Shown piece after piece: positions 9,901 to 12,900 of a DNA stretch of 64,000 bases. Below the pieces are notes generated by a model that was not told the DNA's origin, ran no database searches, and was given only the letters and a program-made list of their open reading frames with translations. Position numbers and translations under genes: made by a program. The DNA comes from Owenia fusiformis (Eukaryota > Annelida > Polychaeta > Sabellida > Oweniidae), in NCBI GenBank assembly GCA_903813345.2, contig CAIIXF020000010.1, positions 9,354,349 through 9,418,348 of the forward strand. The letters run 5' to 3'. Position 1 is the stretch's first letter. Every line of letters begins with the position of its first letter.

Positions 9901-12900
9901 TAGGGAAGAAGTGACTTGTTACTTACAATGGGAAGTCTGTTGTTCTGCATCATTCGATCAAATTCTTGGTTTATCTTCTGGTATTTCTCCTCAGTTCTAG
10001 GTGTAAGGATATACTGGTCAGAGTCAGGGTCAGGACTGTCACACCCCTTGTTTTCCTTTTTATTTAAAGCCTGGGGAAAGAAATCACAAAACACGCCATT
10101 TTACTTGGTGCAAATGGTTTGGTTATTAGTCATGGTGGGAGTTGAAAGATACCAGCCGCTAGGAGAGTTTTACTAATTCAAAGCCTACAGCTACATAAAA
10201 CTGTGGAAATAAACATGAATTCAAAATTGCCTTTGAATTAAAAAATGTAGTCTCCATAGCGAAAGAAGATAGGGTTGCCCTTTGTAGAACAGGACCTCAG
10301 ACAGGGGACCTGCAATCAGGATGCGCAATAACACAGGTCAAATAACAAAACTTCTAAGGATAACATTCCAGGAGTAATACAGACTGAAAAAAATAAAAAT
10401 AAAATTAATAAATAGAGGGATGGCTGATTAGACCAGTTAAAGATTATAATCGATGAAGTAGCAAAGACATGATCGCAACTCAGATGAGATTATACTTGCT
10501 AGCACTGTGACAAAAGACATCCACCTATAACTCAATAGGAGCCTACCATTGTCATTCATGTCTACTCCATCTATATTAAACTTCCATGTCCCATAACAAA
10601 ACACAAGTCACATGTGACATAGGAAAGAAATTTGGACTCTTGTTAGGGTCATGCTGTGATGGGTCACCAGGGCTATTATAGAAGTCATCATCTTATCTAT
10701 TTCATTTGATTCACCTTTACTGTTCATACCAATTGACTATTAACCATACTTGTGGTACAAATTGGCAATTAGGCAGGAATCATTATGAAATAGACAAATT
10801 TAGGGAGATTAGTAGTATACATTCACTGCTCCTGACAGAGGTAGGTACCTGGTAATATTGTGCTGCCTCCAACGAGCCATCGAATCCAATATTGTTGTTA
10901 TCGTACACCTTTTGCTCCTTCATTGCAAGTTTCTAGAGAGAGAAAGAAGCATCGATGATGATTTAAAAGCAATCAATCTAAACAGCAAAAATATCAAAGT
11001 AAGATACAGTAAAACCTGTAAAGTAGAACACCTCCAGTAGAACACCTCCAGTAGAACACCTTTCTGCAAAGGCCTGCAACCTATTTACTTATTAAATAAA
11101 ACTCTGTAAATAGAACACCTCCCAAGTGGAAAACATTTTAGATGTATCGAAGGTGTTCCACTTAGACATGTTCACTGTACCATGCAAACACTGTGATCCT
11201 GCTTCTTCAAGGCTCAGACCAAGAGCCAGTGAGAGGGGGATTAATATTTAGGAATTTCATTTTTTGAAAAGTAACACCACCCCCCCCTCCCCTGGCAAAA
11301 GCTGGCCATGGGCTGGGGCTCAATATTGTGCAGCAGCTTCTTGTTAAAATAATGAAATCATCAGGTTATATGTTACAAATTTAATTATGACCATCAGCTG
11401 TTCTCTGTTTTCTTGCACCTTTTACCTTGAGTAAATGATTGTCGTTACACATTACACTGACCTCCTTTCCTCTATCTCTTTCAAATAAGAAGATGATTTT
11501 CTTTGTAGTATCAATGCACTCTGATGCCCAGAGGCTTCAATACTCATAATTACTGAACAAGATGGAATTATTTCATAAAGTGAAATGAAACAAATTCCAA
11601 TTATCTGTAACTCTGGAACCCAGCGGCTTGATAGATGACGTATCACTAAAAAGGAAGTTATTTGATAAAGAAGCCGAATGACACTATTGAAGAATATTGT
11701 ATGATTTCCAGTTCAATACCTATGTGTACTTATGTGTTGATATATACCTAAGGCTTGTTGAATCCATTCTCATATTTTTTGTCCTAGATATCGCAATTGA
11801 AAACATGTTCTATTGGCAGTATATTGTCATAGCATGTGGGGGAAGATATGTATGCCTCAAAGAGGGACATTCACCACAAAGTTATTGATTCAAATCAGTC
11901 GTAACAAAAGAATATGGAATACTTCATGAATATTGAATTGGCTTACCTTTTATAATATAAAAAATAATTGCAAAAGCTCATATACTAGTTATTATAAACT
12001 ACTGAGTAACTCTACTGAAAACCAAGCTCTCTTTTAAAAAACAAAGTCAATGAATGCAAAGGGTAATAAAAAAGTTCAACATGTGCGCTAAAAATAATGA
12101 CATTTGCAGAAAGTTATCTAGGGACCAGTTTTTATAGACATTTTTTCAATCATTGTTTATTCATTCCAGGTACTAAGAGCTTGAGGCCAAATCTAAACTG
12201 AACATTATATTTTCTATGGATTAATGGCAAGTGAACCCCAGATGAAAACAACATTAAAGTACTTTACAGCAATCCAGTATCGAATTGTGTATCTCAATTG
12301 TGGATCCACTCCTCTCAAATGCTTCTCTTGAATCCAAGTCACCTAGCTAAAGCACAGCCAAGCCCCTGTGAAAGGGTACCTCCATTCTGATACTCATAGC
12401 ATCGTTCTGTTTCACCTGACACATCTCAGGGCTGAGAAGAAATTAGATATTATGGTTTATCATTATGAGGTACCTCAGATTGGCCAACTACATAGGGCTT
12501 TATTTCCTGAGCATGCCATCAGAATGTAATATATTAGTATTATGATTTCTGATTCAGATAAGTCGACAACCCATTGGTGAGATCAAGTGCTTTACACATG
12601 AGACATAATAATCTCACTAAACTAAACAGATTCTTTACATCACATTTATACCTTCAAGAGTAAAGACATATGTGAACATATGAAAATCTGATTGATCCTC
12701 AATTTTAAAATTTTAAGATGGGGGGGGGTATATATAAAGCTAGTTGAGCTCTAGCAAAAGGTACCATTATTTATGAGCAGTCAAACACATAGCTACTTCA
12801 TTTTGTGTGCCTCTCTACTTCAACATCTGTGTTGATGGTGCTGCATCAGATTTCTAAACACTTTCACTGGCAGCTTTCTACCAGAGGCTTTCTCCTACTT

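What the first reader, a model, noticed from the sequence alone, without database searches (positions are those of the whole stretch)
10849..10932. Unrecognised in-frame exon directly after the MEF2 domain
Seen: an 84-nt segment, open, phase 0 at both ends, with a strong pyrimidine-tract acceptor and a CAG/GTACCT donor, in the intron where vertebrate MEF2 genes place mutually exclusive alpha exons. Known: alpha exon choice changes cofactor binding and phosphorylation of MEF2. Inferred: this is a lineage-specific cassette inserting 28 residues ([13 protein letters not shown] and on, Tyr/Asn/Gln-rich) between E86 and A87, where cofactors bind.
Basis: partly seen in the sequence, partly recalled or inferred. 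Interest (0 to 1): 0.8.

Follow-up and report, generated by a model that had tools for sequence, protein, structure and literature searches.

The report
Candidate alternative exon in animal MEF2
A MEF2 gene (a muscle and nerve gene regulator) of a probably invertebrate animal appears to carry an extra small exon that could be swapped for its usual one, removing a conserved protein module; this resembles a known vertebrate switch in a different form, and RNA data are needed to prove it.

Summary
The 84-nt segment at 10932-10849 (minus strand), here called X84, is very probably a real in-frame coding exon of an animal MEF2 gene that is single copy in its genome as far as the searches show. Under a recalled splice consensus it is the only pair of its quality on either strand of the window; 17 of 3608 open intronic 84-mers match its codon score; it found no second copy in the 498 Mb genome. 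X84's start ([11 protein letters not shown]) weakly resembles alpha's ([11 protein letters not shown]), which favours a swap. A swap removes the detectable HJURP_C domain and both S/T-P sites of alpha, giving a shorter, MEF2B-like protein. Best reading: an alternative exon used like vertebrate alpha1/alpha2 but not a close copy. The donor is weak; splicing, exclusivity, tissue use and conservation could not be tested (no RNA, no animal relatives available). New variant of a known kind.

The parts
10849..10932 (-). X84: candidate alternative exon, 84 nt, phase 0/0, 28 residues [28 protein letters not shown]
10933..10952 (-). polypyrimidine tract and TAG acceptor of X84
   Evidence: 9th of 1360 AG sites, recalled consensus
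10843..10848 (-). donor of X84, GTACCT after CAG; weak (no +5 G)
   Evidence: 34th of 1415 GT sites, recalled consensus
9927..10070 (-). alpha exon, 144 nt, phase 0/0, residues 87-134 ([16 protein letters not shown]...NNRLPI); holds 40 of the 56 residues of the HJURP_C match and two S/T-P sites
20135..20338 (-). MEF2 exon 2, residues 19-86 (rest of MADS box and MEF2 domain)
28883..28936 (-). coding part of the first coding exon, [18 protein letters not shown] (start of MADS box)
8582..8747 (-). E4, MEF2 exon after alpha; phase-0 acceptor, so it can join X84 or alpha
8098..8282 (-). E5, MEF2 exon with [17 protein letters not shown]
7628..7805 (-). E6, MEF2 exon starting with a run of 20 Gln codons
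7071..7227 (-). E7, MEF2 exon
3707..3989 (-). E8, last MEF2 coding exon, ending ...[12 protein letters not shown] and stop

Best explanation
X84 is a real alternative coding exon of the MEF2 gene of this animal, used mainly in place of alpha (E2-X84-E4), as vertebrate MEF2A/C/D choose between alpha1 and alpha2. Shown: its sequence anatomy, frame compatibility and coding character. Inferred: that it is spliced, and that it replaces alpha. With alpha, MEF2 carries HJURP_C and two S/T-P sites just after the DNA-binding domain. With X84, residues [11 protein letters not shown] would continue the end of the MEF2 domain, and the HJURP_C match and both S/T-P sites are gone. The likely effect is a shorter isoform that keeps DNA binding but escapes whatever kinases and corepressors act through the alpha module. 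By analogy with MEF2D-alpha2 this may be a derepressed form; the direction of effect is a guess.
For: Only pair of its quality in the window under the recalled consensus, 1 in 412,524 strand-bases elsewhere. Ab initio score 17.1, near E2 18.4, alpha 17.7 and a part of E5 17.0; 5th of 123 phase-0 candidates on both strands. Codon score reached by 17 of 3608 open intronic 84-mers. One DNA match in the genome, itself. No second MEF2 gene found, so no paralogue is known to supply the variant. Its start aligns without gap to alpha's (L..KE.K..D, score 17 over 12 residues; 0.64% of 200,000 residue shuffles reach it). All four splice combinations are open: 456, 436, 484 and 408 residues. HJURP_C, tested on the part coded by E1 to E4: E 1.5e-15 with alpha, none at E up to 1 with X84 in its place, 2.9e-15 with both. 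Vertebrate precedent for alpha1/alpha2 exclusivity and for PKA and HDAC control of the alpha1 form: PMC5852603 and PMC5840707, passages.
Against: No transcript evidence. Weak donor. The resemblance to alpha covers about 12 residues; among 3210 open frames after an AG in the window (both strands, alpha and X84 included) six others score higher than X84 and three tie with it. Frame does not enforce exclusivity, since both exons are multiples of three. The 778-nt intron between X84 and alpha is long enough to be spliced, so both may be included. No TGCATG between X84 and alpha, unlike the site reported downstream of MEF2D-alpha2. A repeat-derived candidate outranks X84 in the ab initio list. Conservation untested.
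Confidence: 0.58

Rival explanations
1. Cassette exon: X84 is included ahead of alpha, adding 28 residues between E86 and A87 while keeping HJURP_C.
For: X84 and alpha are both phase 0/0 and the 484-residue product is open; Pfam still finds HJURP_C with both exons.
Against: X84's start weakly resembles alpha's start, which suggests substitution. Inclusion would move the ALNKKE segment, part of the 1-95 stretch shared with solved MEF2 chains, by 28 residues.
Confidence: 0.26
2. A chance pseudo-exon, or a decayed exon that is not spliced or only at noise level.
For: Weak donor; no RNA; a plus-strand candidate at 54048 scores higher than X84 in the same ranking, so the scoring can be fooled; thresholds were set at X84's own scores after the fact.
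Against: The 54048 candidate lies in a repeat next to poly-C tracts; X84 found no second copy in the genome. Three largely separate tests (sites, codon usage, alpha-like start) favour X84.
Confidence: 0.12
3. Alternative terminal exon: X84 is read through its donor to a stop 21 codons further on, giving a truncated MEF2 of the DNA-binding domain plus 49 residues.
For: The frame stays open for 49 residues.
Against: No AATAAA or ATTAAA between X84 and alpha on this strand.
Confidence: 0.04

Closest known systems
Vertebrate MEF2A/C/D mutually exclusive exons alpha1/alpha2 (PMC5852603, PMC5840707; passages)
   Same: Same position next to the MEF2 domain; a choice at this place changes phosphorylation and HDAC or coactivator binding in vertebrates.
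   Different: X84 codes 28 residues against 48 for its partner, lacks a detectable HJURP_C and any S/T-P site, and resembles alpha only at its start. The alternation is unproven here.
Litopenaeus vannamei MEF2 mutually exclusive exon 2a/2b (PMC10051702; abstract, section 2.1 and passages)
   Same: Single MEF2 gene of an invertebrate with an early mutually exclusive coding exon.
   Different: The two named shrimp proteins are of equal length (428 residues) and 15 of 17 variants keep MADS-MEF2 and HJURP-C; here the partners differ by 20 residues and one lacks HJURP_C. The shrimp exon sequences were not seen.
Nematostella Mef2 splice variants (Genikhovich and Technau 2011; paper not held; seen only as described in PMC5253434 passages)
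   Same: Splice forms of an invertebrate MEF2 with different developmental roles.
   Different: Which exons differ could not be read here.
MEF2B and other MEF2 proteins without HJURP_C (PMC3048864, PMC6723361; passages)
   Same: A MEF2 protein without HJURP_C, as the X84 replacement isoform would be.
   Different: There the gene lacks the module; here exon choice in one gene would remove it.

Membership tests
MEF2 transcription factor (the gene) | MADS box (Pfam SRF-TF) | tested here: met
   E 2e-24, residues 10-57
MEF2 transcription factor (the gene) | MEF2-specific extension after the MADS box | tested here: met
   phmmer match of residues 1-95 to MEF2C chain 5f28_A, E 5.7e-56
MEF2 transcription factor (the gene) | HJURP_C after the MEF2 domain (not universal) | tested here: met
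   With alpha: E 1.5e-15, residues 95-150; not found at E up to 1 when X84 replaces alpha
Vertebrate-type alpha1/alpha2 exon pair | Two alternative exons in the same place directly after the MEF2 domain | tested here: met
   X84 and alpha both lie between E2 and E4; position only, use of X84 not shown
Vertebrate-type alpha1/alpha2 exon pair | Either exon alone keeps the frame | tested here: met
   456 and 436 residue products, one stop each, at the end
Vertebrate-type alpha1/alpha2 exon pair | The two exons are related along their length (recalled) | tested here: inconclusive
   Weak match over 12 residues, 0.64% of shuffles as good; lengths 28 and 48
Vertebrate-type alpha1/alpha2 exon pair | Mutual exclusivity and tissue-specific choice in mRNA | not testable with these tools
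   No RNA data held
MEF2D-alpha2-type RBFOX control | UGCAUG downstream of the alternative exon | tested here: not met
   None between X84 and alpha; nearest at 11186 (upstream of X84) and 9244 (downstream of alpha); 32 on this strand of the window

The most novel reading that the evidence does not exclude
X84 is a distinct alpha-type exon that turns one MEF2 gene into two transcription factors, one with and one without the HJURP_C module. Exon choice would then do in an invertebrate what vertebrates do with both alpha1/alpha2 splicing and a separate gene without HJURP_C (MEF2B). It would be testable across related phyla.
Probability: 0.4. Interest if true: 0.62.

Novelty: new variant of a known kind. 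Interest (0 to 1): 0.46.

Why it matters
MEF2 exon choice decides between repression and activation in vertebrate muscle (PMC5852603, PMC5840707, passages). If a distant animal with one MEF2 gene has its own swap at the same point, and the swap removes HJURP_C, whose function one paper says remains to be analysed (PMC10051702, passage), that animal gives a natural plus/minus test of the module and evidence on whether the switch is ancient or arose more than once.

Tried and rejected
Relatives: the X84 peptide against the own genome gave only itself; X84 joined to E4 gave these two places and one at E 1.44 on C1; the MEF2 domain in viral contigs gave no relative (one scan); the string KLAMKEQ is in none of the held papers. 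The genome-contig collection (bacteria and archaea) was not scanned. COX1 in the own genome, sought to help name the organism, found nothing. No Rfam match at gathering score in the window. RNA fold around X84 is not special (z 1.2; 182 of 200 shuffles fold as well). No inverted repeats of 20 nt or more were found in 8748-12500.

A second X84-like stretch, [11 protein letters not shown] at 9228 (score 34), looked like a third exon. Six shuffled queries over the window gave maxima of 30-38. In the gene's three introns around X84 and alpha 20 of 400 shuffles reach 34, and in the alpha-E4 intron alone 12 of 2000. I saw no phase-0 acceptor for it by eye. Unexplained, probably chance.

A splice model trained on local loci was weak: 8 donors and 3 acceptors passed. 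The main counts use a consensus recalled from memory; both results are given. The codon test used provisional borders for some MEF2 exons, and its 178 coding 84-mers come from its own training set; corrected borders were used.

The organism is named by no call. Twelve large contigs (C1-C12; lengths of 11 seen, 31.9-62.2 Mb) and 498 Mb made me think, from memory, of the annelid Owenia fusiformis. A listing and one passage did not confirm it.

Odds of the single readings are unchanged.

Full report
What is there. The minus strand of the window carries the coding part of one MEF2 gene from 28936 to 3707. The exons join into a 456-residue protein that starts [18 protein letters not shown] and ends ITSEGWPT. 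In the part coded by the first four exons with alpha, Pfam finds the MADS box and HJURP_C, and residues 1-95 match solved MEF2 chains, the best at E 5.7e-56. The gene looks single copy in the 498 Mb assembly, within the limits of a search that scores only the best candidates: the MEF2-domain exon finds itself and one place at E 6.34, alpha only itself, X84 only itself as peptide and as DNA.

The observation. X84 is as described: 84 nt, open, phase 0 at both ends. The acceptor is good. The donor is weak; under the recalled consensus its score (2.65) lies between those of coding exon 1 (2.96) and alpha (1.50), and below those of E2 (7.82), E4 (7.24) and E5 (7.86).

Is it more than chance? Three tests bear on it. 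First, splice sites: with both scores at or above those of X84, there is one phase-0 open pair on the minus strand of the window (X84), none on the plus strand, and one in 412,524 strand-bases of 60 other loci, some overlapping. By summed score X84 is one of six on the minus strand, the others being E2, a part of E2, alpha, an off-frame overlap of E4 and a part of E5; there is one on the plus strand and 20 in the loci, many of them myosin exons. Under the small locally trained model there are two on the minus strand, the other ending at the donor of MEF2 exon 1. Second, codon usage: trained on 5789 codons of 60 myosin and kinase matches in this genome, 17 of 3608 open intronic 84-mers score as high (the top 12 printed start at 6525-6586), and 1.35% of 10,423 open 84-mers beyond 30000; X84 is at or above 82.6% of 178 coding 84-mers from the training set. 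Third, the start of X84 aligns without gap to the start of alpha; 0.64% of 200,000 residue shuffles do as well. Against this, among 3210 open frames after an AG in the window six others score higher than X84 and three tie, so the third test alone is modest. In a combined ranking of 123 phase-0 candidates X84 is 5th. Above it are a repeat-derived plus-strand candidate at 54048, an off-frame overlap of E4, E2 and alpha; just below it is a part of E5.

Swap or insertion? Because alpha and the acceptor of E4 are also at phase 0, the products with alpha, X84, both or neither are all open: 456, 436, 484 and 408 residues. Likeness of X84 to alpha at the start favours substitution, and so does the vertebrate parallel, a mutually exclusive choice between alpha1 and alpha2 next to the MEF2 domain in MEF2A, C and D (PMC5852603, passages). 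Nothing in the sequence forces exclusivity.

What the swap would do. With alpha, HJURP_C is found at residues 95-150 (E 1.5e-15). With X84 instead it is not found at E up to 1, and with both exons it is kept (E 2.9e-15). alpha has two S/T-P sites and four S/T in all; X84 has no S/T-P and one S/T. In vertebrates PKA phosphorylation linked to alpha1 lets MEF2D bind HDACs, and MEF2C-alpha1 binds PIN1 through a phosphoserine, while alpha2 escapes the PKA control (PMC5852603 and PMC5840707, passages). The alpha exon here has no R/K-x-x-S/T site within it, so a direct PKA analogy is not supported; a proline-directed kinase is the closer analogy. That X84 gives a derepressed isoform is inference.

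Compared with what is known. A choice of exons next to the MEF2 domain is known in vertebrates. The shrimp gene has a mutually exclusive exon 2; its two named products are of equal length and 15 of its 17 variants keep MADS-MEF2 and HJURP-C (PMC10051702, abstract, section 2.1 and passages). Nematostella Mef2 has differentially expressed splice variants with effects in knockdown (as told in PMC5253434, passages). PMC6723361 notes that the first alternative event of the other three vertebrate genes involves part of HJURP_C, that MEF2B lacks it, and that HJURP_C is missing in MEF2 of Hydra, C. elegans and Ciona (passages). It disputes PMC3048864 (passages) on Nematostella and Drosophila. A swap that removes the HJURP_C match from a single MEF2 gene was not described in the passages I read. 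My searches were made, in an open-licence library, and I saw most of the listed papers only as listings, so this is not a claim that it is unpublished.

Verdict. The exon is very probably real (0.88 over the swap, cassette and terminal-exon readings together), and a swap with alpha is the most likely use (0.58). It is a variant of a known kind of switch, of moderate interest until transcripts or relatives are examined.

Noticed in passing
window 9196-9228, minus strand: Intronic stretch [11 protein letters not shown] resembles the start of X84 ([11 protein letters not shown]); by eye five of the seven shared residues use a different synonymous codon. No phase-0 acceptor seen. 12 of 2000 shuffles as good in that intron, 20 of 400 over three introns. 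Relic or chance.
   Followed up: partly
window 53797-55000: Foldback repeat: arms 54114-54411 and 54686-54983 are 95% complementary, with a nested pair at 54406-54540 and 54556-54690 and a duplicated unit beside poly-C tracts; it yields the top-scoring candidate exon at 54048. The family scan of it did not run.
   Followed up: partly
window 63286-63999: 45-nt tandem array, 15.8 copies, 98% matches, reaching the window's end; open on the minus strand as a VGYHKIVLCFVHSND repeat, probably not a gene.
   Followed up: no
window 5138-6243: 50-nt tandem array, 22.1 copies, inside the last MEF2 intron.
   Followed up: no
window 7746-7805, minus strand: Run of 20 Gln codons at the start of MEF2 exon E6, preceded by a Gln at the end of E5; a possible length polymorphism.
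   Followed up: no
window 11007-11120: Short repeats of AGTAGAACACCTCC type about 75-190 nt upstream of X84; meaning unknown.
   Followed up: no
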